Source: Azospirillaceae bacterium (GTDB lineage: Bacteria; Pseudomonadota; Alphaproteobacteria; Azospirillales; Azospirillaceae). Taken from it: DNA of 64,000 bases. Under the pieces are notes generated by a model. That model had not been told where the DNA came from and ran no database searches. It worked only from the letters and a program-made list of their open reading frames with translations. The position numbers and the translations under genes are program-made. Position 1 is the stretch's first letter. Every line of letters starts with the position of its first letter. Location of the stretch: the NCBI GenBank assembly GCA_028283825.1, contig JAPWJW010000003.1, positions 2,108,501 through 2,172,500 on the forward strand, written 5' to 3'. Of this stretch, positions 16,964 through 44,067 are shown piece after piece.

Positions 16964-17060
16964 CCTCAGACGCCGGCGGGGCCTCCGCCCCTTGGCTCAT
17001 CCTCAATTTCCAGTCCGCTAACGCTACCCGGAAATCTCCGGCGGCCCCGGTCGGGGCCTA
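16964..17060 (+). repeat. Structured intergenic repeat, copy 1 (forward)
   Basis: One copy of a dispersed family. Hairpin A is GGGGC-ctcc-GCCCC, followed by the TTTCCAGTCCGC...CGGAAA stem, and hairpin C is GGCCCC-ggtc-GGGGCC. The terminal GGCAT hairpin seen in other copies is absent. A short extra fragment of the left end lies at 16939-16951. The element ends 24 bp from the pyrD stop codon. Confidence 0.85.
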
Positions 17061-17084
17061 GGAAAACTTGGTGATTGTTCCCGT

Positions 17085-18152
17085 TCAGCGATGATCCGCG
17101 CCCACGGCCTGGCCGATGCTGGTGAAACCGTCGCGGCGCAGCAGATCGACCAGGTCGCGCTTGATGACCGTCACCAGGCCCGGCCCCTGGTAGATCAGGG
17201 CGGAATAAAGCTGGATCAGGCTGGCGCCGGCGCGGATCTTGGCATAGGCCTGGGCGCCCGATCCCACGCCGCCCACGCCGATCAGCGGCAGCTTGCCCCC
17301 CGTCAGGCGATAGAAGTCGCGCAAGACCGCCGTCGCCTTTTCGAACAGCGGCTGGCCGCTAAGGCCCCCGGTTTCCGCCCGCAGGTGCGGCGGCAGACTG
17401 TCGGGCCGCTCCAGCGTGGTGTTGGTCACGATCAGGGCGTCGATGCCGCTGGCCAGCGCCACCTCCGCCACGTCCAGCTTGTCATCCTCGGTCAGGTCCG
17501 GCGCCACCTTCAGCAGCAGGGGCGTGCGGCTCGTGCCCCGCGCCTCCAGGCAGGCGGCCAGCAGGTCGGTCAGGGCCTGGCGGCCCTGCAGCGTCCGCAG
17601 GCCCGGCGTGTTGGGGGAGGAGACGTTGACCACCAGGTAATCGGCGGTGGGCGCCAGGCGGCGGATGCTGGTGACGTAGTCGGCCGCCGCGTCCTCGCTG
17701 GTCTTGTTCTTGCCGATGTTGACGCCGACGATGCCGCGCCGGCCCGCCGCCCGTCGCGCCTCGATCCGGGCGGCGAAGGCGTCCAGCCCCTCATTGTTGA
17801 AGCCGAAGCGGTTGATCACCCCCTCCGCCTCCACCGCGCGGAACAGGCGCGGCTTGGGGTTGCCGGCCTGCGGCTTGGGCGTAACCGTGCCGGCCTCCAC
17901 GAAGCCGAACCCCATGCCCAGCATGGCGTCCGGCACCACGGCGTTCTTGTCGAAGCCGGCGCCCAGGCCCACGGGGTTGGGGAAGGTCAGGCCCAGCAGG
18001 GTCTGCGCCAGTGCGGGGTCATCGGCGCCACCGGCCCCGAACAGGGCGCCGGGCATCAGGCCGGATTTCAGCAGGGTGACGGTCAGGTCGTGCGCCCGCT
18101 CCGCCTCCATGGCGAACAGGATGGGACGGGCAAGGCGATAGGCCAGGCTCAC
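17085..18152 (-). CDS. pyrD: Dihydroorotate dehydrogenase (quinone), class 2
   Basis: A 355-residue membrane-associated flavoenzyme that oxidises dihydroorotate to orotate with quinone as acceptor, the fourth step of pyrimidine synthesis. The N-terminal extension with the AHDLTVTLLK helix identifies the class 2 membrane-anchored form. GAGFDKNA, NRFGFNNEG, VNVSSPNTPGLR (with the catalytic serine) and the FMN-phosphate site IGVGGVGSG are present. It starts with GTG at 18152, overlapping the DUF952 gene stop by 4 bp. Confidence 0.95.
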   Translation of the reverse strand: MSLAYRLARPILFAMEAERAHDLTVTLLKSGLMPGALFGAGGADDPALAQTLLGLTFPNPVGLGAGFDKNAVVPDAMLGMGFGFVEAGTVTPKPQAGNPKPRLFRAVEAEGVINRFGFNNEGLDAFAARIEARRAAGRRGIVGVNIGKNKTSEDAAADYVTSIRRLAPTADYLVVNVSSPNTPGLRTLQGRQALTDLLAACLEARGTSRTPLLLKVAPDLTEDDKLDVAEVALASGIDALIVTNTTLERPDSLPPHLRAETGGLSGQPLFEKATAVLRDFYRLTGGKLPLIGVGGVGSGAQAYAKIRAGASLIQLYSALIYQGPGLVTVIKRDLVDLLRRDGFTSIGQAVGADHR

Positions 18153-18535
18153 TTCGGGGCCCCTTCAAGCACGTGGGCGGGGAAGACGTGGCGCCCGTCG
18201 GCGCCCAGCGGCAGCGGGTCGGCGCGGCGCACCGCCGCCACCGGCAGGATGCCGTAGAGATGGGGAAACAGCTGGCCGCCGCGTGACGGTTCATACTTCA
18301 GGGCGTCGCCCAGCGGGGCCGGATCCACCGTCAGCACCAGCAGGCCGGCCTGTCCGGCGCGGTGCTTGGCGGCACTCTCCACGATCTGCCCGGCCGTGGA
18401 AAAGTGGATGAAGCCGTCCGCCTGGTCCTGCGATGACCCCGGATAGCCGCCCGACACCTGGGCGGCGGCCCATTCATCCTCACGGCACATATGGAAGATC
18501 AGATCGTTTTTCGGTGTGGGCATGGGCGTCGGCAT
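18149..18535 (-). CDS. DUF952 domain protein
   Basis: A 128-residue protein of the DUF952 family. The domain signature is visible: LIFHMCREDEW near the start, then DGFIHFSTAGQI, LLVLTVDPAPL, and FPHLYGILPVAAV. The family is cytosolic and of unknown biochemical function, often found beside pyrD in alphaproteobacteria. It is the first gene of a two-gene operon with pyrD, coupled by a GTGA overlap. The N-terminal PTPMPTP run is unconserved and the true start could be a few codons later. Confidence 0.85.
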   Translation of the reverse strand: MPTPMPTPKNDLIFHMCREDEWAAAQVSGGYPGSSQDQADGFIHFSTAGQIVESAAKHRAGQAGLLVLTVDPAPLGDALKYEPSRGGQLFPHLYGILPVAAVRRADPLPLGADGRHVFPAHVLEGAPK

Positions 18536-18834
18536 GGTGTTGGTCCCCGTCTGGGCGCGACCCTAGATTATTTTTCCGCCGGGCGTGATGGGAAATGCAC
18601 GAATAGGCCCTTGAGGGGCGATGCAGGGGTGTGCGGGATGCCTTTTGGCGGGCAGGGCGAGGCAGGATGAGAATTCGCCCATTTGCAAATTGAGAAGAGT
18701 GATGGGGCGTCGTCGCAAAATGACATTACCACCGCGCTGAAATTTTATGACCGACGGTGCGCAGCAATCGCAAAGCGGCCGATTCCTTTGGTTCCGTGGG
18801 GCCCGCCGGCATGACCTTTCGATAGCTGTCGCAT

Positions 18835-18849
18835 TGGCACCCGGTTTGC
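18835..18849 (+). promoter_or_regulatory. Sigma-54 (RpoN) promoter, -24/-12
   Basis: TGGCAC-CCGGT-TTGC matches the sigma-54 consensus TGGCAC-N5-TTGC at every conserved base with exact spacing. It lies 40 bases upstream of a 70-codon gene that has a strong ribosome-binding site. No obvious NifA (TGT-N10-ACA) or NtrC site was seen in the 300 bp upstream, so the activator is unknown. Confidence 0.75.
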
Positions 18850-18888
18850 GTCTTCCCGTCCGGACTTTATCAACGGTGGAGGACGGCC

Positions 18889-19101
18889 ATGGGCCAACTG
18901 GACACGTCGCGTGTGACTGAACAGGGCGCTTTCCTGAACCTCGGGTCGGGTGAGGCCCGCATGGGCGACGCCGGCGTGGTCACCCACACCCAGGCGCCGC
19001 TGAAACCCACCACCGAGATGCTGACGGCCGGCGCGCGCGCCGGCGGGGTGAGCGTGGAGGTCGCCTGGGCGATCTACACCACCATGCTCAAGGCGATGTG
19101 A
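18889..19101 (+). CDS. Small protein of unknown function behind a sigma-54 promoter
   Basis: A 70-residue soluble protein with no signal peptide, cysteines or membrane segment. The middle is Gly/Ala-rich (LGSGEARMGDAGVV) and the last 25 residues form a likely amphipathic helix pair (TEMLTAGARAGG, then EVAWAIYTTMLKAM). GGAGG sits seven bases before the ATG. The gene stands alone, and its only upstream signal is the RpoN promoter, which suggests expression under nitrogen limitation, motility or another RpoN-controlled state. I do not recognise the family. Confidence 0.7.
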   Translation: MGQLDTSRVTEQGAFLNLGSGEARMGDAGVVTHTQAPLKPTTEMLTAGARAGGVSVEVAWAIYTTMLKAM

Positions 19102-19150
19102 TCCGCTTCGGTTTTATTGCGGAAATCCAAGATGTTGCTGGCGTCGTCGG

Positions 19151-19173
19151 GCGGTTTCCGGACAGGAAACCGC
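19151..19173 (+). terminator. Perfect hairpin downstream of the sigma-54-controlled gene
   Basis: GCGGTTTCC-ggaca-GGAAACCGC forms an exact 9-bp stem about 50 bases after the stop codon. No U-tract follows, so it is a possible terminator or 3' stabiliser rather than a clear intrinsic terminator. Confidence 0.4.
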
Positions 19174-19571
19174 ATCGATTAAGACGGATCCTGCAACATA
19201 AGGATTAACGTTAGCTCAGTCGATCCCGCACCGTTGCCCGGCCTAATCTTCCAGGAAAAGGCGATCAGGGCGGCGTGCATCCGTCCCTGCGCTGATCAGG
19301 GAGGGATATCAGGTCCAGGTGTGGGTGGTCCCGACTCGGGAGGGAGCGCTCCGCGACAGGCATGGCTCCACAAGGGTGGCGCCCAAGCATATCCGCACAT
19401 TTTGAACGTTCGCCGGCCGGTCTTCCTCCCAAGGGTTCCGGTCTCCGGCAGGTTCGCGCCTGCCCTCGGCGTCGACGAGGCCCCCCGGCGGACGGGTGGT
19501 GCCCGTGCAATGGCTTGTCATGACCGGGCACCGTGCGAAGACGCGGGCCCGGAACGGGAGGGTACCGGGTG
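19174..19571 (+). other. Long structured non-coding leader before the TonB receptor
   Basis: No coding region is supported in these roughly 400 bases. Several GC-rich hairpins are visible, among them GGCAGG-ttcgcg-CCTGCC at 19447-19464, CCTCG-gcgtcga-CGAGG just after it, and GGTGCCCG/CGGGCACC at 19498-19532, close to the receptor's ribosome-binding site. It does not match cobalamin, TPP, FMN or SRP RNA landmarks. It could be a regulatory 5' leader or a separate small RNA. Confidence 0.35.
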
Positions 19572-21799
19572 ATGGAATTAGGTGGAAAGCGCATAGGGTG
19601 GTGGATGGCGGGCACCGGCATGGTGGCGCTTTGCGCCCTCATGTGCCCGGGACGGCCGTGGCCCAGGTCCTGCCGGCGGCGCCGGCGGTCCAGCAGGGGG
19701 CGGCACCCCAGGGCGCGCCGCAGCAGGATCCCGACATGCTGAACGGCATCCAGGAAATCGTCGTCACCGCGCAAAAAAGGTCGGAAAACGCGCAGAATGT
19801 GCCCATCGCCATCACCGCCTTGAACCCGGAGGCGATGGCGGCGGCCGGCGTGACCGACACCAGCGACCTGAAGTCGCTGACCCCGGGGCTGAACTTCAAC
19901 ACCAACCTGGGCGGCTTCGGCCAGCCACGCGTGCGCGGCGTCGGCACCACCGCCACCGGTCCCGGCATTGAGAACCCGGTCGCCACATATGTGGACGGGG
20001 TCTATATCGGCTCCTCCGCCGGTGCCCTGTTCGCGCTGAACGACGTGGAACAGGTGGCGGTGCTGAAGGGGCCGCAGGGCACCCTGTTCGGCCGCAACGC
20101 CACCGGTGGCCTGATCCAGGTGACGACCAAGGAACCCACCCAGGACTTCCACGCGGATGTGGAGGGCACCTACGGCAACTACGACACCTTCCAGGGCAGC
20201 GCCTTCCTGTCCGGCGGCATCACCGACACGGTGGCGGTCAGCCTGGCGGCCTTGCGCGAGGACCAGCGCGATGGTTATGGGAAGAACCTCTACAACGGCC
20301 AGGACGTGCAGAACCACGACCAGAGCGCCGTGCGGGCCAAGATTCTGTGGAAGCCGGACGCCGACACCAAATTCCTGCTGTCGGCGGATTATGAGACCTA
20401 CCACGCCGCCGACCCCGCCATCCGCACCTACGGCCTGACCACTCTGGGCACGCCCACGCCGGGCGGCCCCTACGACATCGACCTGGACGTCCAGCCCTTC
20501 CTGCAAACCCGGCAGTGGGGCACTAGCCTGACCGCGCAGCACGACTTCGACAATGTCGAGGTGCTCAGCATCACCGCCTACCGCAACTCCTACTTCCACA
20601 CCATCTTCGACGCCGACCAGATACCGGTCACCGGCCTGGTCCTGAATGAGACCCAGCGGGACCAGCAGTTCAGCCAGGAACTGCAAGTGCAGTCCATCGG
20701 CGACGGCCCGTTCAAATGGACCGCCGGCCTTTATTATTTCTGGTCGAAGGGGCTGTACGATCCGCTCAGCACCAGCGGCGCCTTCCTGTCATCGCCCACC
20801 TTCCCGCTGACCCGCACCGACCTGTATGTGGACCAGTCGCTGAATTCCTACGCCGGGTTCGCCCAGGGGACCTACGCCCTGGACGACGCCACCAACCTGA
20901 CGGCGGGTCTGCGCTACACCGTCGACCAGCGCGCCATCACGGAAAACCAGACCCTGACCGTTGCCGGCTTCCCGGTGGCGGAGGCGCCGGTGGATGATGC
21001 CAAGACCTTCGACAAGCTGACCTGGCGCCTGTCGCTGGACCATCGCTTCTCCCCCGAACTGCTGGGCTACATCTCCTATAATCGGGGGTTCAAGAGCGGC
21101 TCGTTCGCGCCCGACACCTTCCCGGTGGAGGCGCTCAAGCCCGAGACCCTGGATGCCTATGAGGTGGGGCTGAAGTCCGACCTGTGGGACCGCCGCCTGC
21201 GGGTCAACGTGTCGGCCTTCTATTACGACCAGACCAATCTGCAGGTGAACCAGATCGTCCAGGGCGTGCTGCTGGTCTACAACGCCAGCGGTGCCACCAG
21301 CTACGGCATGGACGCCGACGTGCAGTTCCAGGCGACCAGCCATCTGACCCTGAACGCCGGCCTCAGCCTGCTGCACGCCCGGTACAAGGAATTCGAGAAC
21401 GCGTTCGAACTGTTCCCGCTGGCGACGGGCGGCAATTCCTTCGACCAGAACGGCAACGCCACCGGCAAGCAGTTGCAGAACACCCCGGCCGTCACCGTCA
21501 ATGCCGGCGCCAGCTACGACATCCCAACCGCGGTCGGCAAGTTCACGCTGGCCGGCAATTACTATTACAACGGTGGTTATTACGCGGACCCGCAGAACCG
21601 CACGCGCCAGAATTCATACAACACCCTGGACGCTTCGCTGACCTGGGCGTCGAACGACGGCCAATACACCGCGCGCCTGTGGGGCAAGAACCTGACGGAT
21701 GAGTTCTATACCCAGCAGGTCAACCCACTGAACGTGGGCGACAACTGGGTCGCGGCCCCGCCACGCACCTACGGCCTGACCCTGGGCGTGCATTTCTGA
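19572..21799 (+). CDS. TonB-dependent outer-membrane receptor, frameshifted in the signal peptide
   Basis: About 742 residues once the frame is corrected. A good ribosome-binding site (GGAGGG) and signal peptide (MELGGKRIGWW, then a hydrophobic stretch to CALMCPG) are in one frame. The mature protein from TAVAQVLPAAP onward continues in another. One missing base in the CCCGGGAC stretch near 19651 explains this exactly and restores a TAVA/Q cleavage site. The plug domain starts with the TonB-box-like EIVVTAQKR, and LKGPQGTLFGRNATGG is the plug signature. The barrel ends in a final phenylalanine (LGVHF). The receptor is of the sphingomonad/Caulobacter type; the ligand is unknown. Confidence 0.85.
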
Positions 21800-21812
21800 T
21801 CAATAAGGCGTC

Positions 21813-21944
21813 CCTCAGGCGCCGGGCGCGGCCATCCGGCCGCTGGGCTTGTCCTCCCTTTCCGGTCCGCCTGCGGTTCCCCGGAAAGGTCCGGCGGCTG
21901 CGGTCGCAGCCTACAGCGGCATGGGGTTCGTCCCATGCCGCTGG
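21813..21944 (+). repeat. Structured intergenic repeat, copy 2 (forward)
   Basis: Hairpin A is GCGGCC-atcc-GGCCGC, then the CTTTCC...GGAAAG stem, hairpin C is GGCTGC-ggtc-GCAGCC, and terminal hairpin D is an exact 11-bp stem AGCGGCATGGG/CCCATGCCGCT (21915-21942). It fills the whole gap between the convergent receptor and helicase genes. Confidence 0.9.
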
Positions 21945-21946
21945 CA

Positions 21947-24929
21947 TCAGTCGAGATCGAAGCCCTGGAGGTGGAAGGGCTCATCCCCCCAGGGATCCCG
22001 GCCATTGTCGTCCATGGGCGGACCGCCGGGCAGCATCGGCGGCGGTGGGGGCGCCAATTGCTCCGGCCCTGCATCCGGCATATGCAGGAACTCCCGCGTG
22101 ATGCGCACAGCCTCGGCCAGGCCCACGCGCTGTGGTTCCACCCCGCCGGGGAAGGCGCCCTTCAGCCGGCTGGGCATCATCGGGTCCAGCAGGACGAAGA
22201 CGCCGGTGTCGTCGGCCCGGCGCACCAGCCGGCCGAACGCCTGGCGCAGGCGCAGGCGGGTGATCATGTCGTCGTAATGCCGGCGCCGGGCGGTGCGGTC
22301 GAAATATTCCCGCCGCGCCTTGTGCAGGATGTCCGGCCGGGGCCAGGGCACGCGGTCGAACACGATCAGGCGCAGGGACCGGCCGGGCACGTCCACGCCA
22401 TCGCGCACCGCGTCGGTGCCCAGCAGGCAGGCGTTATCCTCCCCCCGGAAAATGTCCACCAGGGTGGAGACGTCCAGCCCATCCAGATGCTGGGACAGCA
22501 GGGGCAGGCCGGCGGCCTCCAAGGGCGCGCCGATGCGTTCATGCACGGCGCGCAGGCGCTGCACGGCGGTGAACAGGCCGATGGCGCCGCCGCCCGACGC
22601 CAGGAACAGCTCGCGATAAGCAGCCGCCACCTGGGCCAGATCGTCCTTGCGCACGTCGTTGACGATCAGGACGCGCGTCTGCTTGGCATAGTCGAAGGGG
22701 GACGGCACCTGGGCGCGCAAGGCCGGGCGCGGCAGGTGGATGGCGCCGGTGCGCGCCTGGGCCGCCTGCCAGTCGGCCTCCACATCGCCGGTGCCGTCCG
22801 TCAGGGTGGCGGAGGTCATGACCAGGCCGTGGGCCTGAGCCGCCAGGATCTGCGCCAACGGCCAGGTGGGGTCCACCCAATGGCGGTACATGCCCACGTC
22901 CAGGTCGCGGCCGTCCTGCCGCTCCACCCCGAACCAGTCGACGTAGCGGTTGGGCGGCTCCTCCGCCAACGCCGCCAGCATCTGGCGCCAGCCGCCGATT
23001 TCATTGGCGGAGCGGCGCTTCAGGCTGCGGGCGATGGCGTCGATGCGGCGGCGGGTGTCGCTGTCCAACTCATCCGACTCGTCATCCAGGCGTTCGCGCA
23101 GCCGGTCGGCCAGGGCTTCCAGCGGGGCCGACAGTTCCCCTAGCGCGGATGACAGCGCCTGCGCCGCCTCCAGCACCCCGTCCACCAGGGGCTGGACCTC
23201 CACCTCCAGGCTGTAGGGATTGTCCGGTCCGTGGGCGCGGGCATAGACCTGGCCGCGCACCTGCGCCAGGAAGGCCTCCGTCGGGCCCACCGGCTCGCCC
23301 CCGCCCACGCGCTGGGGCCAGGCCTCGCCCGGCAGCTTGTGGGCGGCGCGCGCGACCTCATCCAGCAGGCGGGCGGCGTGGTCATCGCCGCCGATCAGAT
23401 CCTCCACCCGGCGGCGCAGGCCGCGCGCCCGGCTGCGCCCGCCGCTTTCCGCGCCCAGCAGCCAGCGGCGCAGCTCCGCCGTCTCGAACCCTGTCAGGTG
23501 GCCGGCGAAGGCGTTGTCGGCGGCGTCGAACACATGATGGCCTTCGTCGAAGACATAACGCGTGGGCACATAGGCGTCGTCCCCGCCACCCAGGGCCGCC
23601 TGGATCATCACCAGGGCATGGTTGGCGATGACGATGTCGGCCCGGCGCGCCCGGCGCACGCTCTTCTCGATGAAGCACTTGGTGTAGTGGCTGCACGCGC
23701 TGTAGACGCATTCGCCCCGCCGGTCGGCCAGCGCCAACGTGCGGCCCTTGCCCAGCAGATCGACCAGCCAGCCGGGGAAATCGCCGCCCTGCATGTCGCC
23801 GTCGCGGGTGCTGGCCGCCCAGCGCGCCATCAGGCCGATGGCCACGGCGTATTGCTGGTTGGCGGTGGCCACCCCCGCCGCCTCCTCCAGGTTCAGCAGG
23901 CAGAGGTAGTTTTCCCGCCCCTTGCGGATCACGACCTTGCGCGCCTTGGTGGCCGGGTCCAGGTGCAGGCGGTCCATCTCCTTATCGATCTGGTGCTGCA
24001 ACTGGCGGGTATATGTCGAGATCCAGACGGGGCCCTTGTTCTTCTCCGCCCACACCGTGGCCGGCGCCAGGTAACCCAGGGTCTTGCCGACGCCGGTCCC
24101 GGCCTCCGCCAGCACCAGGTTGGGCTCACCCTCCACGTCGCGGGGGGGTGAAGGCGGTGGACACCGCACTGGCGTAGTCCGACTGCTGTGGCCGGGGTTC
24201 GGCCGCCTGGCCGCTCATCACCATGTCGGCCAGGCGGCGGCGCGCCTCGGCCTGTTCGACCGGCAAATGGCCGGGCGGCGGCTCCGGCGCGTCGGCCTGC
24301 CATTCCTTCATGCCGGCCCACACCTGGTAGGCGCGGATGGCACCGCCGCGCCAGCGTGCCTTTTCCGGCCCCGCGGGCGCGCCCAGGGCCGCCAGCACCA
24401 GGGGCGACCACAGCCAGCCACCGCCCCGGTCGTCATTGTCGCCCCCGCCCATGGCCCAGGCCAGGCCGATGGGGTCCGACCGCTCATCATGGATGGGGCC
24501 CATCAGTTCGCGCAGCAGGGCCTCGGCCGCGCGCACCAGGGTCAGGGCCTCAGCCTCCGCATCCTCGGGTCGCGGCAAACCCAGCGCCTGGGCCAGGCCG
24601 CGCGGCGTGGGCAGGCAGAAGGTGGCCGGCCGCACGAAGGCGTACAGCTCCAGCAGGTCATAACCCTGCAGCAGCCGGTCGGTGCCCAGGCGCCGCGCCG
24701 TGGCCCGCGCATGGCACAGCAGGTGGGGTTTGGCGCTGGCCCGCCGCGCCGCCTCCCCCTTGTCGATCAGTTCCACCTCGCCATCGGCGCTCAGCCACAC
24801 CGCCTGGCGCGCACCGGGGATCAGGGCCGGCGCGTCGGGTACCAGCAGGCGCCGCGGCCCGGTCGGGGCCGACACCAGGCTGGCCGGCGGGGGCTTGGAA
24901 CCGGTGGAGGAGGGGGGGGACTCGGTCAT
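21947..24929 (-). CDS. DinG-like ATP-dependent helicase, frameshifted
   Basis: About 994 residues after correcting one frameshift. The first 265 residues (24929 down to about 24145) form an N-terminal region that runs into QQSDYASAVSTAFTPP. The rest is in another frame and contains Walker A LAEAGTGVGKT, the four-cysteine iron-sulfur region starting CVYSACSHYTKC, the DEAH-type box FDEGHHV, SATL, and motif VI RLRQAFGRLVRR. This is the XPD/DinG superfamily 2 helicase architecture, acting on R-loops or forked DNA. The break is at a run of seven Gs (24142-24148 on the plus strand), where one more base would join the halves seamlessly. Confidence 0.85.
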
Positions 24930-25082
24930 GGCGGCGGAGTATAGACGGCGCCCAGCGTCATTTCATGAACAAAAGCGGTACGGCTGATGGGCGATGGCGG
25001 GAAAACGTTTGGTGATATTGTCTTGGCCGCGCCGATACCCTAAGTGGTGTGGCATTTCCGGTGGCATGTCGGGGGAAGCGTC

Positions 25083-25484: not shown

Positions 25485-25489
25485 GGCGG

Positions 25490-29470: not shown

Positions 29471-29590
29471 CCGGGCCGGTGATCAGCCGGCCCTAGGCCC
29501 CGACTGGGGCCGCCGCAGGTTTTCGGGGAGCGTAGCGGACTGAAAACCGAGGATAGCCAAGGGCCCGGATGGGCCCGCCGGCGCCTGAGG
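29471..29590 (-). repeat. Structured intergenic repeat, copy 3 (reverse)
   Basis: Read on the minus strand: hairpin A is GGGCCC-atcc-GGGCCC, then the GTTTTCAGTCCGC stem, hairpin C is GGCCCC-agtc-GGGGCC, and terminal hairpin D is GGGCCGG/CCGGCCC (29473-29493). It fills the gap between the convergent feo operon and the next gene, ending 8 bp from that gene's stop codon. Confidence 0.88.
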
Positions 29591-32674: not shown

Positions 32675-32761
32675 CCTCAGACGCCGGCGGGGCATCCGCC
32701 CCTTGGCTGTCCTCGCTGCGCCCTGCGGTGCTCGCTCCGGCGGCCGCGGTCGCGGCCTAGG
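32675..32761 (+). repeat. Structured intergenic repeat, copy 4a (forward)
   Basis: Hairpin A is GGGGC-atcc-GCCCC and hairpin C is GGCCGC-ggtc-GCGGCC; the central stem is diverged (CTGCGCCCTGCGGTGC). A GGGCGCGGGC segment followed by CTTTTTGTTTTT lies just before it (32652-32674) and may terminate part of the transcripts after the binding-protein gene. It faces copy 4b in inverted orientation. Confidence 0.8.
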
Positions 32762-32795: not shown

Positions 32796-32891
32796 TAGGC
32801 CCCGACCGGGGCCGCCGGAGATTTCCGGGGAACGCAGTGGACTGGAAATCGAGGATAAGCCAAGGGGCGGATGCCCCGCCGGCGCTTGAGG
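32796..32891 (-). repeat. Structured intergenic repeat, copy 4b (reverse)
   Basis: Read on the minus strand: hairpin A is GGGGC-atcc-GCCCC, the central stem is ATTTCCAGTCCAC...CCGGAAAT, and hairpin C is GGCCCC-ggtc-GGGGCC. Its outer end supplies GAGGA, nine to ten bases before the GTG start of the first permease gene, so the element appears to form part of that gene's ribosome-binding site. Confidence 0.85.
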
Positions 32892-35160: not shown

Positions 35161-35250
35161 CATTCGGGCCGATCTGGCAATTGGATACACCAACGCCAAA
35201 AGCCGCGCCCAAGGCGCGGCATCAAATCGTCCGACAGGAAGAAGGGGATT

Positions 35251-35885: not shown

Positions 35886-35891
35886 GCCACC

Positions 35892-36215: not shown

Positions 36216-36221
36216 CATCCC

Positions 36222-36647
36222 TCAGCCACCACGCAGCCCCACTTCAACGAGGACGCCTGCGGCCAGGCCCAGCCACCACACCCAGAAGACCTTGCGCGGC
36301 TGATTGAGACAGCTTGTTCGCCGCCAGAGGTAGGCGGGCGTCAAGAGCACCCAGAGGAAGGAAAAATTCCGTCCCAGCCGGTTCAGCGCCGGGCGGATGG
36401 CGCCCCGGTCCAGGCCTGCCAGCACCAGATAGGCGATGCCAGTGGCGAAACTTCCAACCAACTTCACGTCGTGTGGCGGTGTGCCGTGCAATTGGTGAAG
36501 CGCATGTTCGATCAATGCGCCGATTGGTGGAACGATCACCATGGCATAAGCATAGATGTCGGGGATACGGATGTCGTCTGGCTGTCCATCCGTTTCCAAT
36601 GGTGAATCGGACGAGGTGTTCGGCCCCGATAGAGTTTGGTCCGTCAT
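36222..36647 (-). CDS. Hypothetical membrane protein
   Basis: A 141-residue protein with a polar N-terminus of about 30 residues and three or four hydrophobic segments (YAYAMVIVPPIGALIEHAL, LVGSFATGIAYLVLAGL, FSFLWVLLTPAYLW, VFWVWWLGLAAGVLVEV). The pattern WVLLTPAYLWRRTSCLNQPRKVF is reminiscent of small bacterial zinc-ribbon-less membrane proteins, but I do not recognise a family. AGGGGAA supports the ATG at 36647. It converges on the DUF167 gene with 6 bp between stop codons. Confidence 0.65.
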   Translation of the reverse strand: MTDQTLSGPNTSSDSPLETDGQPDDIRIPDIYAYAMVIVPPIGALIEHALHQLHGTPPHDVKLVGSFATGIAYLVLAGLDRGAIRPALNRLGRNFSFLWVLLTPAYLWRRTSCLNQPRKVFWVWWLGLAAGVLVEVGLRGG

Positions 36648-36730
36648 CGCGTCATTCCCCTGCATTATCGCCTCAGCCCTCAAAGGCTACGCGATGGATA
36701 CGGCCCCGCAAAGGGGCGCGAAGACCCAAA

Positions 36731-36764
36731 GAAAAAGCCCCGCCCGGTTTCCCGGGACGGGGCC
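36731..36764 (-). terminator. Rho-independent terminator of argG
   Basis: On the minus strand GCCCCGTCCCGGG and CCGGGCGGGGC pair, followed by TTTTTC (the GAAAAA at 36731-36736 on the plus strand). It lies about 32 bases past the argG stop codon. Confidence 0.85.
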
Positions 36765-36796
36765 TTGTCCTTCAGCGATGGGAATGATGCCGCCGC

Positions 36797-38008
<1,212 letters not shown>

Positions 38009-38137
38009 GACGGTACGCCCGCTTTGCTGGGGGGAATTCGTCGCGGACGTTATCCGCCGGGCGCCCGGCTGGCAAGAATGCTGCGCCTGTGGCGGCCGCA
38101 TCCCCCGCCCGCGCCGGATAGTGGCGCTCACGGCTGT

Positions 38138-38257
38138 TGTTCGCCGAGCGGCGAACACGGTGTGGTCAAGCGGCCAAGGATGGGATATGTTCGCCGTACG
38201 ACGAACGGAGCGCTTTATAAAGGCAGGCCATGTCCGTTGTTAGCCGAACGCAGAACA
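38138..38257 (+). promoter_or_regulatory. Three evenly spaced palindromic operators of hipBA
   Basis: Site 1 (38138-38157) is an exact palindrome, TGTTCGCCG-AG-CGGCGAACA. Site 2 (38188-38207) is TGTTCGCCG-TA-CGACGAACG. Site 3 (38238-38257) is TGTTAGCCG-AA-CGCAGAACA. They start exactly 50 bp apart, with the third overlapping the first codons of hipB. This fits autorepression by a HipB-type regulator with cooperative binding. Confidence 0.75.
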
Positions 38258-38532
38258 GAAATCAGGCCCGAGGGGAAGCCTTGGCCCAATTCGGCGCCAT
38301 CGTTCAGGCGGTGGATGAGGCGGTTCCCTTGGATGGGCCGGATCGGTTGGGCGCCCTCATCCGGGCGCGGCGACGGGCATTGGGCATGACCCTGCGCGCC
38401 GCCGCCGCCGGCACCGGCCTCAGCTTGTCCTTTCTGTCGGCGGTGGAGAACGGCAAGCCCACGGCCGAACTGGGCAAGGTTATGAGCTATATGCAGGCGC
38501 TGGGCATAGACCTGTTCGGGGCTATCCGGTGA
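38230..38532 (+). CDS. hipB: HipB-like antitoxin/repressor (Xre family)
   Basis: A 100-residue DNA-binding protein. An N-terminal arm of about 40 residues precedes the helix-turn-helix [45 protein letters not shown], the HipB-type Xre domain. It neutralises the HipA kinase and represses the operon. AAGGCAGG five bases upstream supports the ATG at 38230, although operator 3 then overlaps the coding region. Its stop overlaps the hipA start. Confidence 0.88.
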
Positions 38533-39848
38533 TGGCCGGCGGTTCCGCGCTGGAGGTTTTCCTGGGCGAGCGGGGTGTCGGCGTGCTCGAGGCCGATGCG
38601 CAGGGGCGAATGACCTTCACCTATGCCGACCGCAGTCCCTCGTCGCGTCTGTCGATCAGCCTGCCGACCCGTGCCGAAGCCTATTCCGATGATGAATGCC
38701 GCCCCTTCTTCGCCGGCTTGCTGCCGGAAGGGGATGCCTTGCGCGCCGCCGCCGCCCAGCGCCGCCTGCAACCCTATGAAACCTTCGGTCTGCTGCGGGA
38801 ATATGGGGCGGAGTGTGCCGGGGCCGTGCGTTTGCTGCCATCCGGCAGCCGGCCGGAGATTCCGCAGGACTATGAGCCACTCGATGAGGACGGACTGGCC
38901 CGCGTCATCGATGAACTGCCGGCATCGCCAAATTTCGCCGGTGACCGGCGCGTGCGGCTGTCCGTGGCCGGTGCCCAGCCCAAGACGGCCGTGGCATTGC
39001 TGGATGGACAGTTCCACCGGCCGCTGAACGGCTCACCCTCCACCCATCTTATCAAGGTGGCGCGGCCGGACTTTTTCCCCCTGATGCATAAGGCCGAGGC
39101 GTTCTCCATGGCGCTGGCCGGCAGTTTGGGCGTGGACGTGGCGGGAACGGTGCTCCGTTCTTTTGCCGGGCGGGAATGCCTGCTGGTTGAACGTTATGAC
39201 CGGCGTGTCGAGGGCGGCCGCGTTCATGAAATTCACCAGGAGGATTTCTGCCAGGCGTTGGGTTATCCACCAGAGCGGAAATATGAGTTCTCGGACACCG
39301 GCGAGAAGATTGGCCCTGGATTAAGCGAGTGCTTCGCCCTGGTACGGCAGGCGACGGCACCATTGCTGGCGCGAACCGAGTTGATGCGTCGCATCGTCGC
39401 TTCGGTGCTGTTGGCCAACGCCGACGCCCACGCCAAGAATTTCAGCCTGCTGTACGACGTGCCTGGCGCCGCCCCTGCCCTGGCGCCGGCCTATGACATG
39501 GTGTGCACCCGTATCTTCCCGGTCACGGAAGATTTGGCCATGGCCATCGGCGGCGCTGTTCGGCCGGAGGCGATCCGCCGGGTTAATTGGCTTTCATTGG
39601 CGGCGGCGGGGACACCGGGGGCCTTGAGGGCTGTGGAAACGGCGATAAGGACCCAGGCCGAGGCCGTGCTGCCTAAGCTGGAAGACCTGAGGCAGCGACC
39701 CGAATTCACCGGCATCCAACCTTATGAGGACATTCGGCGCTGTGTGGCCGGTATGGTGCGGAGTGTTGCCGCCGCTTTCGACTGGACCATTCCGGCGGAT
39801 GCTCCGCCCTATCTGGCCAGTGCAGGTGGTTGGACGATGCCCAGCTGA
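38532..39848 (+). CDS. hipA: HipA-family serine/threonine kinase toxin
   Basis: A 438-residue full-length HipA with both the N-terminal subdomain and the kinase core. The P-loop region with the regulatory serine is LSVAGAQPKTAVAL, the lysine is in THLIKVARP, LVERYDR follows, and the catalytic and metal segments are HQEDFCQALG, NADAHAKNFSLLY and LAPAYDMVCT. All key kinase residues seem present. HipA kinases phosphorylate aminoacyl-tRNA synthetases (GltX in E. coli) and induce persistence. The ATG at 38532 overlaps the hipB stop (TGATG); a GTG at 38529 is also possible. Confidence 0.9.
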   Translation: MAGGSALEVFLGERGVGVLEADAQGRMTFTYADRSPSSRLSISLPTRAEAYSDDECRPFFAGLLPEGDALRAAAAQRRLQPYETFGLLREYGAECAGAVRLLPSGSRPEIPQDYEPLDEDGLARVIDELPASPNFAGDRRVRLSVAGAQPKTAVALLDGQFHRPLNGSPSTHLIKVARPDFFPLMHKAEAFSMALAGSLGVDVAGTVLRSFAGRECLLVERYDRRVEGGRVHEIHQEDFCQALGYPPERKYEFSDTGEKIGPGLSECFALVRQATAPLLARTELMRRIVASVLLANADAHAKNFSLLYDVPGAAPALAPAYDMVCTRIFPVTEDLAMAIGGAVRPEAIRRVNWLSLAAAGTPGALRAVETAIRTQAEAVLPKLEDLRQRPEFTGIQPYEDIRRCVAGMVRSVAAAFDWTIPADAPPYLASAGGWTMPS

Positions 39849-39852
39849 CGCC

Positions 39853-40077
39853 TCAAGCCTTCTGCCGGGGCCAGCGGGTGTAGGCCAGGTACCAGAGGGC
39901 CGGGACCCCCAGCACGGGGAAGTACAGCAGCAGGGCCCAGTAGGGATTGCGCCCCACCTTGGCCAGCACCAGGCCGGCGGCGCAGACAGCCACGGTGGCC
40001 AGGATGACGACGACCAGCAATGCCGCCCAATTGGGCAGGGCCAGGCTGAGGATGGGGGCGTAGGCCAGGGGCAGCAT
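39853..40077 (-). CDS. Small membrane protein
   Basis: A 74-residue protein with two hydrophobic helices (WAALLVVVILATVAVCAAGLVLA and YWALLLYFPVLGVPALWYLAY) and a short basic tail. The pattern resembles small phospholipase-D-nuclease-N-like or PLDc_N membrane segments, but that is only an impression. It lies 6 bp after the gene for another small membrane protein on the same strand, so the two form an operon. The function is unknown. Confidence 0.65.
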   Translation of the reverse strand: MLPLAYAPILSLALPNWAALLVVVILATVAVCAAGLVLAKVGRNPYWALLLYFPVLGVPALWYLAYTRWPRQKA

Positions 40078-40083
40078 GGGCGC

Positions 40084-40380
40084 TTACTCCGACGCGGTGG
40101 CGGTTTGCGTTGCGCGCTCCCGCTTCAGGCGTTCGCGGGGGTGCAACTTGGGTGCCCGCGCGGGCAGGGCGGGCCAGGGCGTCTTCGCCAGCAGATACAG
40201 GAAGATGACGGGGCCCAGTAGCGGCAGGACCAGCCACAGGGGCCAGGGCCGGGGCAGGCCGGCGCGGACCACCAGGCGATGGGCCGGCCACAACAGCAGC
40301 GCCGTGATCGCCAGATGGATCAGCAGGCTGTGGGCCAGGTCGGTACCGAGATCCAAAACATGTCCCCCCAAATCACCCAC
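40084..40380 (-). CDS. Small membrane protein
   Basis: A 98-residue protein with two hydrophobic helices (LLIHLAITALLLWPAH and WPLWLVLPLLGPVIFLYLL) and a strongly charged C-terminal tail (HPRERLKRERATQ). It is the first of two small membrane-protein genes in tandem. I do not recognise a family. Immediately to the right lie a short gap and then the tandem repeat array. Confidence 0.62.
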   Translation of the reverse strand: MGDLGGHVLDLGTDLAHSLLIHLAITALLLWPAHRLVVRAGLPRPWPLWLVLPLLGPVIFLYLLAKTPWPALPARAPKLHPRERLKRERATQTATASE

Positions 40381-40524
40381 GTTCTTATGGCCGGATCATA
40401 GCCAAAGGACCGCTGGGTTTACAGAGGGCAGGGTTTACCAGCGGAACCGAGCCCGGCGCCTTGAGGTCGATCAAGGCAACCGACCGCCCATCCAGCGGCC
40501 TGACAATTCTCAGGCCGCTGTAGA

Positions 40525-40840
40525 CCGCGACTGCGGTCGCCGGACCTTTTCGGGGAGCCGAAGGCGGACTGAAAAGGGAGGACAGCCAAAGGGCCGGACG
40601 GCCCTGCCGGCACCTGAGGAAATTAAAAAGTCACCGCGACTGCGGTCGCCGGACCTTTTCGGGGAGCCGAAGGCGGACTGAAAAGGGAGGACAGCCAAAG
40701 GGCCGGACGGCCCTGCCGGCACCTGAGGAAATTAAAAAGTCACCGCGACTGCGGTCGCCGGACCTTTTCGGGGAGCCGAAGGCGGACTGAAAAGGGAGGA
40801 CAGCCAAAGGGCCGGACGGCCCTGCCGGCGCCTGAGGAAC
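40525..40840 (-). repeat. Structured intergenic repeat, copy 5: three tandem 109-bp units (reverse)
   Basis: Units begin at 40525, 40634 and 40743. The first two are identical over the whole 109 bp and the third differs only in its last bases. Read on the minus strand, hairpin A is AGGGCC-gtcc-GGCCCT, the central stem is CTTTTCAGTCCGC...CGAAAAG, and hairpin C is GACCGC-agtc-GCGGTC. The array abuts the rlmN stop codon. Confidence 0.93.
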
Positions 40841-42056
40841 TTACAGGGTCCCCGTGGCCGTGAGGCTGGCTTCCTTTTCCGCCACCTGGGCGGCGTACTC
40901 GGCCTGCAAGGCCTTGTGCGCCTCCATGGCCGCCACGCGGGCCTGGACGGACGGCTTCGTGCTTTCGCTCTTCAGCTGGCCGCAGGCGGCCAGGATGTCG
41001 CGGCCGCGCGGGGTGCGCACGGGCGAGGCGTAACCGGCCTCGTTCACGAAATCCGCGAACTTGGTGATCTGCGCGTCGGTGGAGCACTCGAACGGGGCGC
41101 CGGGCCAGTAGTTGAAGGGGATCAGGTTGATCTTGGCGGGAATGCCGCGCAGCAGGCGCACCAGTTCGCGCGCGTCCGCCAGGCTGTCGTTCACGCCCTT
41201 CAGCATGACGTATTCGAAGGTGATGCGGCGCGCGTTGCTCAGGCCCGGATAGTCCCGGCAGGCCTGCATCAGTTCCTTGATGGGGTACTTGCGGTTCAGC
41301 GGCACGATGCGGTCGCGCAGCTCGTCGTTCACGGCGTGCAGGCTGACGGCCAGGTTGACGCCCAGATCGGCGCCGCACTGCTTCATCATCGGCACGACGC
41401 CGGAGGTGGACAGCGTGATGCGCCGCTTGGAAATGGCGATGCCTTCGCCGTCCATGACGATCTTCAGCGCCTTGGCGACATGCGCATAGTTAAACAGCGG
41501 CTCGCCCATGCCCATCATGACGATGTTGCTCAGCATGCGCCCGTCGGGCGGGGCCGGCCATTCGTCCAGATGGTCGCGCGCCAGCATGACCTGGCCCACG
41601 ATTTCCTTGGCGTCGAGGTTGCGCACCAGGCGCTGGGTGCCGGTGTGGGCAGAAACGGCAGGTCAGGGTGCAGCCCACCTGGGAGGAGACGCAGAGCGTG
41701 CCGCGGTCTTCCTCGGGAATGTGGACGGTCTCGATCTCCTGCCCGTCGGGCATGCGGGCCAGCCACTTGCGCGTGCCGTCCTCGCTCTTCAGATCCTTGA
41801 CGGCGGTGGGGCGCTCGATGACGTAGCGCTCGGCCAGCTTCTCGCGCACGCCCTTGGCCAGCGTGCTCATCACCGCGAAGTCGGTGGCGCCGCGATGGTA
41901 GATCCAGTGCCATAGCTGACGCGCGCGGAAGCGCTCCAGCCCGGCCTGCGCGACCTCGGCTTCCAGGTCGTCCCGCGAAAGGCCGACCAGGTTCACCCGC
42001 CCGTCCGCCTGAATCGGCGGCGGGGCGAATTCCGTCATGTGATTTTCAACGCCCAT
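40841..42056 (-). CDS. rlmN: 23S rRNA/tRNA adenine-C2 methyltransferase, frameshifted
   Basis: About 405 residues after frame correction. It is a radical-SAM enzyme that methylates A2503 of 23S rRNA and A37 of some tRNAs. The N-terminal part ends in [13 protein letters not shown], which carries the Cx3Cx2C cluster motif. The reading frame then fails, and the rest ([14 protein letters not shown] through GMGEPLFNY to AACGQLKSE with the conserved C-terminal Cys) continues in another frame. Removing one base from the GGG at 41647-41649 restores the expected [11 protein letters not shown] junction. The ATG at 42056 or 42038 is the start. Confidence 0.9.
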
Positions 42057-42146
42057 GGCGGCGATAGATGGGGCAGATCCGGCCCGGAGTCAAAGGGGAG
42101 ACTCGGGAAAAATACGCGGGGCCGGGTTGCGGTTGTTGGTCTTATG

Positions 42147-42276
42147 CCCTCAGGCGGCGGGCGGCCCCATCCGGGGCCTTGCCTTGTCCTCGGTTTTCAG
42201 TCCGCCTGCGGCTCCCCGAAAATCTCCGGCGCCCCCGGTCGGGGGCTACATCGGCATGAACAGGCTCATGCCGATG
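42147..42276 (+). repeat. Structured intergenic repeat, copy 6 (forward)
   Basis: Hairpin A is GGCCCC-atcc-GGGGCC, the central stem is GGTTTTCAGTCCGC...CGAAAATC, hairpin C is GCCCCC-ggtc-GGGGGC, and terminal hairpin D is an exact 11-bp stem CATCGGCATGA/TCATGCCGATG (42249-42276). It is a complete copy with all four hairpins, 12 bp from the stop codon of the fnr-type gene. Confidence 0.92.
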
Positions 42277-42288
42277 ACGGGGGGCGGC

Positions 42289-43059
42289 TTAAGCGCCTTC
42301 GGCCAAATCCAGCAGGTCGTCCATATCCTGGATCTGCACCTTGTTGCCTTCCAGCAGGCTGATGACGTGGCTGGTTTTCAGCTGGGTGAAGGTGCGGCTG
42401 ACCGTCTCGGTGGTCAGGCCCAGGTAATCGGCGATGTCGGCGCGGCTCATCGGCACGTGCACCGGGTTGGTCTTGTGGCCGCGCCGGCTGGCCCGCTGCG
42501 ACAGCAGCAGCAGGAAGGAGCAAATCTTCTCCTTGGCCGTCTTGCGACCCAGCAGCAGCATCTGGTCCTGCGCGGCCGCCAGCTCGTTGGACGCCATGGA
42601 GAACAGGCGCCGCTGCATCTTGGGGAATTCCTCCAGCAGCGCCTCCATCCGGCGGCGGGGGAAGCGGCAGAGCGAAACCGGCGTCACCGTCTCGGCGGTG
42701 TAGGCATAGCTGTCGTTGACCGACAGGCCGAAGAAATCGCCGGGCAGCAGGAAACCGGTAATCTGCCGGCGCCCGTCGGGCAGCAGCTTGTAGACCTTCA
42801 CGGTGCCGGAGGTGACGTTGTACAGCGTCTCCGCCGGGTCGCCCTCGCCGAACACGGTGTGGCCGCCGTCGAAGCGCGTGGTTTGCAGGATTTCGGCCAG
42901 GCGGCGCAACTCATCCGCCTCCAGTGCCGCGCAGACGGTCAGGGTGCGGACGGTGCAGGCGCTGCACGGGTGCATGTCACCGGCGGGGGCGGGCCCAGAG
43001 GACGTGGACTTGGTGTCACCATCCCGGGAATAGGCAAAATCGATATTGGCATTGGCCAT
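42289..43059 (-). CDS. fnrN: FNR/FnrN-type oxygen-sensing transcription regulator
   Basis: A 256-residue Crp/Fnr-family regulator. The N-terminal cysteines CSACTVRTLTVC have the C-x2-C-x7-C spacing of rhizobial FnrN/FixK-type [4Fe-4S] proteins, and a fourth cysteine occurs in VSLCRFPRR. The cyclic-nucleotide-type sensor fold spans residues 45-165, and the C-terminal helix-turn-helix contains SRADIADYLGLTTETVSRTFTQL, with the E/S/R residues that read TTGAT half-sites. It should activate genes for low-oxygen life. An FNR box lies in its upstream region, near the divergent gene. Confidence 0.9.
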   Translation of the reverse strand: MANANIDFAYSRDGDTKSTSSGPAPAGDMHPCSACTVRTLTVCAALEADELRRLAEILQTTRFDGGHTVFGEGDPAETLYNVTSGTVKVYKLLPDGRRQITGFLLPGDFFGLSVNDSYAYTAETVTPVSLCRFPRRRMEALLEEFPKMQRRLFSMASNELAAAQDQMLLLGRKTAKEKICSFLLLLSQRASRRGHKTNPVHVPMSRADIADYLGLTTETVSRTFTQLKTSHVISLLEGNKVQIQDMDDLLDLAEGA

Positions 43060-43345
43060 CGCCTGCGCTCCGCCCTCGGTTCATCACGGCATCACGATTC
43101 TGCGGAACTGGGGAAGCCCACGCGTGTGACGGTGATGGTGTGATCCGATCATCCCCCGGATCGTTGCCCCCGGTCCAGATCCGAATATGGCGCGGGGCGC
43201 CGATATCGATAAAGACGGGAGATCGAAAAGACGGCCGGCCCTTCATTCCCCAAGCAATGCCGTGGGATCAGCATATAGCCGCTAAACCACGGAGGGAAAG
43301 CCCGGATTGATCCGACCTGACCGTATGGGCCCAAAGGTGGGTGGT

Positions 43346-43359
43346 TTGATCCAGATCAT
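43346..43359 (+). promoter_or_regulatory. FNR/anaerobox
   Basis: TTGAT-CCAG-ATCAT differs from the TTGAT-N4-ATCAA consensus at the last base only. It lies about 70 bases upstream of the acetyltransferase-like gene and 287 bases upstream of the divergent fnr-type gene. A weaker half-similar site (TTGATCCGACCTGA) starts at 43307. The region from 43060 to 43429 holds no gene. Confidence 0.6.
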
Positions 43360-43429
43360 GGCCGCCATTGGGAATACCGATTCAGGATGCCGGTCCACCC
43401 GTCTCGGATTGCAGCGCCGGATTGCCGCC

Positions 43430-43930
43430 ATGCCCGCCACCTTCGTGACCCGCCCCCTCGACCCGCGGCAGATCGACCAAGCCTATGCCCTGATGCGCCC
43501 CTTCTATCCGGGCCTCACGGTGGAACGCTGGCGTGAGCATGCGACGGCCCTGCTGGCGCCCGTCGGCCGGGGCGCCAATGCCAACGCCCCCCTGGGCGGC
43601 ATCGTCACCGTGCAACTGGACCACCGCTACATGCACGGCCTGTTCTCCTACCTCGTGGTGCCGGATCTGGACCACCGCCGGGGTTTGCAGGTCGACGTGT
43701 TCGTGGCGCTGGACCTGTTCGATCCCGTTGCCGCGGCCGATGCCCTGCTGGCGGAGATGGACCGGTTGGCCCAGTTCCATGGCTGCGACGCCATCCACAT
43801 CACCCTGCCGGACCAGCAGGAGGCGGCGCACCCCTCGTTGGCCCGTTTCCGCGCCCGCGGCCATGTGCCGGAGGGCCGGCGCCTGTGCAAGCACCTGGTG
43901 CCGGTGGCGGCAGCCCCGCCGGCGGCTTGA
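43430..43930 (+). CDS. GNAT-like acetyltransferase family protein
   Basis: A 166-residue soluble protein. The pattern TFVTRPLDPRQIDQAYALMRPFYP followed by GGIVTVQLDHRYMHGLFSYLVVPDLDHRRGLQVDVFVALDLF suggests a GNAT fold, although the pyrophosphate-binding R/Q-x-x-G-x-G/A loop is not clear. The ATG at 43430 is chosen because the residues upstream do not look conserved and the FNR box sits between. The presence of that box suggests low-oxygen induction. The acetyltransferase assignment is tentative. Confidence 0.6.
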   Translation: MPATFVTRPLDPRQIDQAYALMRPFYPGLTVERWREHATALLAPVGRGANANAPLGGIVTVQLDHRYMHGLFSYLVVPDLDHRRGLQVDVFVALDLFDPVAAADALLAEMDRLAQFHGCDAIHITLPDQQEAAHPSLARFRARGHVPEGRRLCKHLVPVAAAPPAA

Positions 43931-43941
43931 TCTTCACCTGT

Positions 43942-44067
43942 CCTCAGGCGTCGGCAGGTCCATCCGGACCTTTGGCTATCCTCCCTTTCCAGTCCACTTC
44001 GTTTCCCGGAAAGGTCCGGCGCCCGTAGTCGCGGGCTACAGTGGCATTGAGTGGGCTCATGCCACTG
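43942..44067 (+). repeat. Structured intergenic repeat, copy 7 (forward)
   Basis: Hairpin A is AGGTCC-atcc-GGACCT, the central stem is CCTTTCCAGTCCAC...CCGGAAAGG, hairpin C is GCCCGT-agtc-GCGGGC, and terminal hairpin D is CAGTGGCAT/ATGCCACTG (44039-44067). It follows the acetyltransferase-like gene stop by 11 bp and is a complete four-hairpin copy. Confidence 0.9.

What the first reader, a model, noticed from the sequence alone, without database searches (positions are those of the whole stretch)
16964..44067. A dispersed family of structured intergenic repeats with covarying stems and constant loops
Copies occur at 16964, 21813, 29471, 32675, 32796, 40525 (x3), 42147 and 43942. Each begins CCTCAGGCG-like and shows hairpins in the same order. 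In hairpin A the stem varies (GCGGCC/GGCCGC, GGCCCC/GGGGCC, AGGTCC/GGACCT, AGGGCC/GGCCCT, GGGGC/GCCCC) while the loop stays ATCC or close to it. In hairpin C the stem varies (GGCTGC/GCAGCC, GCCCCC/GGGGGC, GACCGC/GCGGTC, GCCCGT/GCGGGC) with a constant GGTC or AGTC loop. Several copies end in a third strong hairpin around GGCAT/ATGCC. Compensatory change means the pairing is selected or was generated by a copying process that keeps pairing. Most copies sit within 25 bp of a gene's 3' end. I recognise no described element.
Basis: seen in the sequence. Interest (0 to 1): 0.8.

Follow-up and report, generated by a model that had tools for sequence, protein, structure and literature searches.

The report
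Hairpin-rich mobile repeats at gene ends
The repeats are real: they belong to a short, non-coding mobile DNA element made of several hairpins, present in hundreds of copies in this bacterium and in relatives, that tends to sit at the ends of genes and keeps its hairpins almost perfectly paired while their sequence changes.

Summary
All ten copies are present and form one family. A covariance model finds 72 more in 980 kb of sampled genome (about 500 genome-wide) and at least 100 in each of six congeners. The covariation is real: 96% of stem cells pair, 15 of 25 pairs change on both sides, and slid controls collapse. G·U and A·C cells are both rare (17 and 31 of 1906) and orientation relative to genes is balanced, so the pairing looks like a property of DNA hairpins, not of a strand-specific RNA.

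Full copies have five hairpins (0-A-B-C-D), inverted ends starting TAC or TAT, and a 3-bp TNA duplication. Filled/empty sites in Azospirillum show insertion at TCA or TTA; in the four annotated cases that triplet is a gene's stop codon. In another genus 38 of 40 left ends follow TNA. This helps explain the gene-end location.

Best reading: a MITE-like non-autonomous transposable element, not described in the searches made; its 38-nt hairpin core occurs in 26 of 289 alphaproteobacterial genomes sampled. No transposase was found, RAYT/REP membership fails, most copies here lack a recognisable left end, and any effect on host RNA is inferred.

The parts
16964..17060 (+). core copy (hairpins A-B-C)
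   Evidence: R1 93.7 bits; full core in G003, a head fragment in G005, and a shortened form without hairpin A in G006 and G002 at the same site
21813..21913 (+). core copy
   Evidence: R1 107.6 bits
21914..21946 (+). hairpin D and right terminus (..CCGCTGGCA) of the 21813 copy; the next three bases TCA (21947-21949) are the stop codon of the facing gene
29494..29590 (-). core copy, 7 nt after a stop codon
   Evidence: R1 103.7 bits; kept at the same site in four of five congeners compared
32675..32759 (+). core copy with a different B hairpin
   Evidence: R1 49.2 bits
32796..32891 (-). core copy; the same site has 1 copy in G004 and G005, 2 in G003, 3 in G002, 4 in G006
   Evidence: R1 97.1 bits
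40739..40837 (-). core copy, first of three tandem copies
40630..40728 (-). core copy, second of three tandem copies
40521..40619 (-). core copy, third of three tandem copies; single copy at this site in G002, G003, G004, G006, none in G005
40493..40520 (-). hairpin D of the tandem array
42148..42248 (+). core copy
   Evidence: R1 120.4 bits
42249..42276 (+). hairpin D
43942..44038 (+). [quoted passage not shown]
   Evidence: R1 93.8 bits
44039..44067 (+). hairpin D

Best explanation
A MITE-like, non-autonomous transposable element. A complete copy is about 140-175 bp: imperfect inverted ends of about 10-12 bp starting TAC or TAT, a hairpin at each end (0 and D), and a core of three hairpins (A, B, C) whose loops and linkers are conserved and whose stems mainly need to be complementary. 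A transposase acting in trans moves it and duplicates a 3-bp TNA target. TGA and TAA, or TCA and TTA on the other strand, are TNA, so insertion at a stop codon duplicates the stop and leaves the protein intact; this, with removal of harmful insertions, places copies at gene 3' ends. Shown: copies, covariation, inverted ends, TNA duplication, filled and empty sites, stop-codon insertions, paired differences at orthologous sites. Inferred: a transposase in trans, and a DNA-level cause of the pairing (recognition of single-strand hairpins during movement, or one arm templating repair of the other). Not shown: any effect on transcripts; an orientation-independent effect on mRNA 3' ends, as proposed for REPs, is possible.
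For: Copies: the 150 best candidates, all that were scored, match in the own genome, lowest 91 bits; 72 in 980 kb sampled. Insertion: five filled sites against empty sites in close relatives, e.g. empty GCGGTC-TTA-CTTCTGC, filled GCGGTC-TTA-[TATCATCGAGCG...GGCGGTA]-TTA-CTTCTGC; in the four annotated sites the right triplet is exactly the neighbour's stop codon. G010: left TNA 38 of 40; both ends seen in 15, right TNA 14, identical triplet 10 of 14 (chance 0.33); 473 occurrences of the left-end sequence, 0 in the reversed control. Own genome: left TNA 15 of 24, right 24 of 65 against 3.9% background; of 19 right ends with TNA, 12 are the neighbour's stop codon against 15% background. DNA-level pairing: 1830 Watson-Crick, 17 G·U, 31 A·C, 28 other cells. 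Same-site comparison: 107 pair comparisons differ on both sides with pairing kept, 28 on one side. Location: convergent 44, divergent 3 of 82; background gaps 70 and 129 of 439.
Against: No transposase with matching ends was found: PF01797 absent from all 7 genus genomes, PF13359 absent from the own genome; of 14 PF01609 matches in the own genome the ends of 5 were read and differ, the other 9 were read in part or not; none of 5 in G010 is bounded by these ends. By my strict patterns only 20 of 82 sampled own-genome copies carry hairpin 0 and 36 of 82 hairpin D, so most copies, the window's included, lack a recognisable left end; their left boundary is unexplained. 30 of 50 right ends show neither TNA at the expected place nor a stop codon there. 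Four of 14 two-ended G010 copies carry two different TNA triplets, and 2 of 8 in the own genome. The left triplet is unclear in the paaK site and altered (TCG) in the acdS site.
Confidence: 0.82

Rival explanations
1. A structured RNA element at mRNA 3' ends (terminator, stabiliser or protein-binding site) whose pairing is kept by selection on the transcript; mobility is ancient or incidental.
For: 79 of 82 copies border a gene 3' end, in sense copies a median of 8 nt after the stop; some sites are kept in four of five congeners with intact hairpins; both strands fold strongly.
Against: G·U (17) is no commoner than A·C (31); sense (16) and antisense (19) copies are about equal in co-directional gaps; near-identical, recently spread copies exist in another genus; filled/empty polymorphism.
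Confidence: 0.1
2. A REP/BIME-type repeat mobilised by a RAYT (Y1 tyrosine transposase).
For: Read on the other strand, hairpin C is preceded by TAG or GTAG in most copies, as GTAG-REPs are tagged; location at gene 3' ends matches REPs (PMC3733652, section 15).
Against: No PF01797 match in any of the 7 genus genomes although the control search rings in E. coli; G017 has 56 matches and no PF01797; 3-bp duplication and inverted ends are not named as REP features in the sections read.
Confidence: 0.05
3. Stems diversify by recombination (gene conversion) between copies that swaps whole hairpins, with loops and linkers as anchors, and not by paired point changes.
For: Hairpin alleles are nearly unlinked: A-C 27 shared pairs against 20.5 expected, B-C 25 against 25.6; at one site (40619) the window copy shares hairpin A with G003 and G004 and the arms of B and C with G006 and G002.
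Against: A and B are weakly linked (20 against 10, 2 of 500 shuffles); 33 different A arms in 81 copies need a source of new stems. It is compatible with the best explanation as a second process.
Confidence: 0.3

Closest known systems
Bacterial MITEs (RUP, NEMIS, ERIC, Nezha and others as listed in PMC3733652)
   Same: Short, non-coding, inverted ends, intergenic, high copy, strong secondary structure; here also a target duplication.
   Different: Five separate hairpins with hypervariable complementary stems and constant loops; TNA target often a stop codon; inverted ends short and imperfect; no parent transposon found.
GTAG-REPs with RAYT
   Same: Palindromes with alternative complementary stem residues, gene 3' ends; TAG beside one hairpin.
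   Different: REPs are single 20-40 bp palindromes; here a 100-175 bp multi-hairpin unit with 3-bp duplication and no RAYT in the genus. GT pairing is reported as often observed there (section 5), rare here.
CGTC-REPs of alphaproteobacteria (PMC3733652)
   Same: Alphaproteobacterial, no dedicated transposase known, gene 3' ends; A. lipoferum is among the species listed.
   Different: CGTC-REPs: one 8-9 bp stem almost always starting with AT, mostly CCA tail (section 6). Hairpins A and C here have 6-bp G/C stems. The figure with the A. lipoferum consensus is not held and was not seen.
IS element with TNA duplication in the same genome (one copy at window 12520-13453)
   Same: 3-bp TNA duplication: TTA, TAA, TCA in three copies.
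   Different: Ends GAGCCTGGCCC/GAGTCCGGCCC, not TACC..; carries a PF01609 gene. Its label IS5/IS427 and the TNA habit of IS5 relatives are recalled, not from a call.

Membership tests
MITE (non-autonomous DNA transposon) | short, no coding capacity, high copy | tested here: met
   about 100-175 bp; 3 of 82 copies overlap a gene call by more than 30 nt; about 500 copies extrapolated
MITE (non-autonomous DNA transposon) | terminal inverted repeats | tested here: met
   TATCATCGAGCG / TACCGCCGAGCG in Azospirillum (9 of 12); TACGCGCGGC / TACCAGCGGC in the own genome (8 of 10); TACCATCGGGCC / TACCGGCGAGCC in G010 (9 of 12). Imperfect, full copies only; shorter than the 15-30 bp named in PMC3733652
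MITE (non-autonomous DNA transposon) | target site duplication | tested here: met
   3-bp TNA, filled/empty sites and statistics
MITE (non-autonomous DNA transposon) | related autonomous element supplies transposase | tested here: inconclusive
   none found among the PF01609, PF13359, PF01797 candidates whose ends were read; other families not searched
GTAG-REP/RAYT | RAYT (Y1 transposase) in the genome or lineage | tested here: not met
   0 of 7 genus genomes, control positive
GTAG-REP/RAYT | 20-40 bp single palindrome with GTAG tag | tested here: not met
   multi-hairpin unit; beside hairpin C only TAG is common, the G varies
CGTC-REP | 8-9 bp stem beginning AT, CCA tail | tested here: not met
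   6-bp G/C stems in A and C, no CCA tail against section 6 of PMC3733652; terminal hairpins 0 and D not compared base by base
Known structured RNA family | match to an Rfam model | tested here: not met
   none at the copies at gathering score; best E 0.66 in one copy
Strand-specific structured RNA | G·U pairs tolerated on the transcribed strand more than A·C | tested here: not met
   17 G·U against 31 A·C of 1906 cells, 12 of the A·C at one pair
IS5 family derivative | ends related to an IS5-family element | tested here: inconclusive
   ends differ from the one IS with TNA duplication read in this genome; other IS5 members untested

The most novel reading that the evidence does not exclude
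A class-wide alphaproteobacterial transposition system, with an unknown transposase that prefers stop codons (TNA) and reads DNA hairpins by loops and shape; each round of movement or repair rebuilds one stem arm from the other, so stems drift freely while staying perfectly paired. The elements are thus continually re-made palindromes, not decaying copies.
Probability: 0.25. Interest if true: 0.78.

Novelty: new variant of a known kind. Interest (0 to 1): 0.58.

Why it matters
It accounts for hundreds of intergenic loci per genome in this genus, gives them ends, a target rule (TNA, often the stop codon) and a link to similar repeats in 20 of 219 sampled alphaproteobacterial genera. It offers a natural system for asking how covariation can arise in DNA without RNA selection, a warning for covariation-based RNA discovery. 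Filled and empty sites between close Azospirillum strains make the effect on neighbouring transcripts directly testable.

Tried and rejected
RAYT/REP origin: rejected on PF01797. The strong Y1 gene of G010 (L118) shows no core head pattern in its 3.4-kb locus. IS5-type parent: the IS with TNA duplication has other ends. The PF01609 gene beside a hairpin D (L191) turned out to be an IS inserted into that hairpin; the IS1182 label is recalled. In G010 one PF01609 locus (L270) has an ordinary element copy on each side but is not enclosed by one pair of ends. Search for longer elements bounded by the own-genome ends in 1.04 Mb: 2 pairs with unequal triplets, one of 171 bp spanning a known element and one 4.8 kb apart. 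Rfam at permissive threshold on one copy: 4 hits, best E 0.66. Same-strand RNA reading: no G·U excess. Ends of the short 5' form: no duplication could be read. Papers: ten searches; by the titles and abstract beginnings listed, none describes this element. Only PMC3733652 was opened (abstract, sections 5, 6, 15 and passages; its figures are not held); all other papers were seen as listings only.

Mistake: the one genome contigs pattern scan used a pattern with one base too many after the loop; its 2 hits are not informative and no second scan was possible.
Full report
What is there. The core is about 100 nt: CCTCA, two variable bases, CGSCGGGC (or a base shorter), hairpin A (6-bp stem, loop ATCC or GTCC), TTGSCT, a linker ending TCCTC, hairpin B (AU-rich stem with a small apical stem), CCGGCG, hairpin C (6-bp stem, loop GGTC or AGTC) and CTA. 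Hairpin D follows in many copies (36 of 82 by a strict pattern).

Is it more than chance. I built a covariance model (R1) from 36 copies: 29 top BLAST hits to one window copy plus seven of the ten window copies; the variant 32675 and two tandem copies were left out. On that alignment 96.4% of 886 cells are standard pairs, 15 of 25 pairs have changes on both sides, and the covariation score is 0.407 against 0.115 in shuffles and at most 0.097 with partners slid by 1-3 columns. The S in GSC/GSC also covaries, so hairpin A has a lower stem. In the own genome the 150 candidates that were scored all match (a cap). The six congeners reach the cap of about 100 (100 or 101 each); 14 of 40 genomes, the own one counted, have matches. 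In 49 stretches (980 kb: 9 picked by hand, 40 at random) there are 72 matches at E of 1e-6 or better, plus 10 in the window; four weaker matches were dropped. That extrapolates to about 500 copies.

Where they sit. Gene calls came from my own hexamer-based caller (86.5% coding), so single boundaries may be off. Of 82 copies, 44 lie between convergent genes, 16 are sense and 19 antisense between co-directional genes, and 3 lie between divergent genes; among 439 gaps of 100 bp or more the counts are 70 convergent, 128 and 112 co-directional, 129 divergent. In sense copies CCTCA lies a median of 8 nt after the stop; in antisense copies the other end lies a median of 34 nt from the gene's 3' end, about the length of hairpin D. 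A gene 3' end is within 25 nt of the core in 40 of 82 copies and within 60 nt in 69.

DNA or RNA. Over 81 distinct copies and 1906 pair cells there are 1830 Watson-Crick, 17 G·U, 31 A·C and 28 other cells. Twelve of the A·C cells are at one pair, the inner end of the B stem. G·U on one strand is A·C on the other, so selection on the + strand transcript should leave more G·U than A·C; it does not. Both strands of the two copies folded fold about equally well. The 5' arms take many forms (gapped forms counted): 33 for A, 29 for B, 19 for C; A-C and B-C combinations are close to random, A-B is weakly linked.

Evolution at one site. The PyrD gene located the syntenic regions in five congeners. The copy at 29494 is kept in G006, G002, G004 and G003 but not G005; the site at 40.5 kb has one copy in those four and three in the window; the 32891 site has 1 to 4 copies; 43942 is absent in the four compared; at 16964 G003 has a full core, G005 a fragment, and G006 and G002 a shortened form without hairpin A. 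Comparing sequences pairwise at the first three sites, 107 pair comparisons differ on both sides with pairing kept and 28 on one side only. These are not independent events, the choice among tandem copies at 32891 is arbitrary, and repeated insertion at one site cannot be excluded.

The full element. The model also matched shorter relatives in other genera. A blastn search of plasmids with one of these finds 18 records, all Azospirillum; 16 of the 18 best places lie under no annotated feature, though some records are barely annotated; two other queries found none. Five sites could be compared with relatives lacking the element. Site 4: empty GCGGTC-TTA-CTTCTGC, filled GCGGTC-TTA-TATCATCGAGCG...CGGCGGTA-TTA-CTTCTGC. 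Site 5 (acdS): empty GGAC-TCA-ACCG, filled GGAC-TCG-TATCATCGGGCG...CGGCGGTA-TCA-ACCG, one triplet altered. Sites 1 (mmsB) and 2 fit a TCA duplication with a left end that varies in its outer bases. Site 3 (paaK) has the right TCA but an unclear left copy. In sites 1, 3, 4 and 5 the right triplet is exactly the annotated stop codon of the neighbouring gene; site 2 is unannotated. One further query (L169) gave no usable empty site, and the region of H13 was fetched but not used.

The same rule in the own genome and elsewhere. Full own-genome copies start TNA|TACGCGYGGC and end GCCGCTGGTA|TNA: left TNA in 15 of 24, right in 24 of 65 against 3.9% per intergenic position. Of 8 copies with TNA at both ends, 6 carry the same triplet (counted); another copy, split by an IS in hairpin D, has TCA/TCA. 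Of 50 right ends, 19 show TNA where expected and 12 of these are exactly the neighbour's stop codon, against 15% of TNA sites near gene ends; 30 show neither. In G010, 38 of 40 left ends follow TNA, 14 of 15 right ends precede it and 10 of 14 match; the left-end pattern occurs 473 times with up to one mismatch, 0 times reversed. Palindromes of about 42 bp made of the two ends alone also occur there. Single copies from G020, G011 and, in another family, G030 show TTA on both sides (read by eye).

Spread. A 38-nt model of hairpin A with its lower stem (R2) matches 26 of 289 alphaproteobacterial genomes, 20 of 219 genera, and 51 of 82 family genomes, 8 of 13 genera, at E of 1e-4 or better with stricter filters, the own genome counted. 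Ten R2 loci were looked at in context; in L199 the script hit a wrong place.

Mechanism. The simplest account is a MITE: inverted ends, 3-bp duplication, no gene, high copy. Stop codons TGA and TAA are TNA, so insertion there duplicates the stop and spares the protein. The transposase is missing. PF01797 is absent in the genus (7 of 7 genomes), PF13359 in the own genome. Of 14 PF01609 matches in the own genome, ends were read for L185-L187 and L191-L192 and differ; L188-L190 were read in part, L193-L198 not. None of 5 in G010 is enclosed by these ends. An IS in this genome does make TNA duplications, but has other ends. Near-perfect pairing with drifting stems and few intermediates suggests that one arm is copied from the other, or that only well-paired DNA hairpins are mobilised; exchange of hairpins between copies probably adds to it. 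These steps are inferred.

Known or new. REPs are the nearest in habit: PMC3733652 reports alternative complementary stem residues and gene-3'-end location (sections 5 and 15), so covarying palindromes at gene ends are not new in kind. New here, as far as the ten paper searches and the Rfam searches show, are the family, its multi-hairpin build, its ends and TNA rule, and its spread.

Noticed in passing
window 12520-13453: IS element with PF01609 transposase and TAA on both sides; two further copies in the genome with TAA and TCA duplications.
   Followed up: partly
window 52222-52499: Rfam matches to group II intron domains.
   Followed up: no
L191, about 820-2494: An IS (PF01609, 468 aa) sits inside hairpin D of a full-length element copy, so the hairpins can serve as insertion targets.
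   Followed up: partly
G010 contigs (L218-L267): Many contigs of this draft genome end within about 100 bp of a copy; the repeat probably fragments the assembly.
   Followed up: no
L255, L256, L259, L261: Palindromes of about 42 bp consisting only of the two inverted ends occur as separate insertions.
   Followed up: partly
window 32675-32759: This copy has a different B hairpin that congeners share at the same site; G003 and G004 carry a further insert in it.
   Followed up: no
window 16939-16951: A 13-nt head of another copy (CCTCAGGCGCCGG) directly before the 16964 copy.
   Followed up: no
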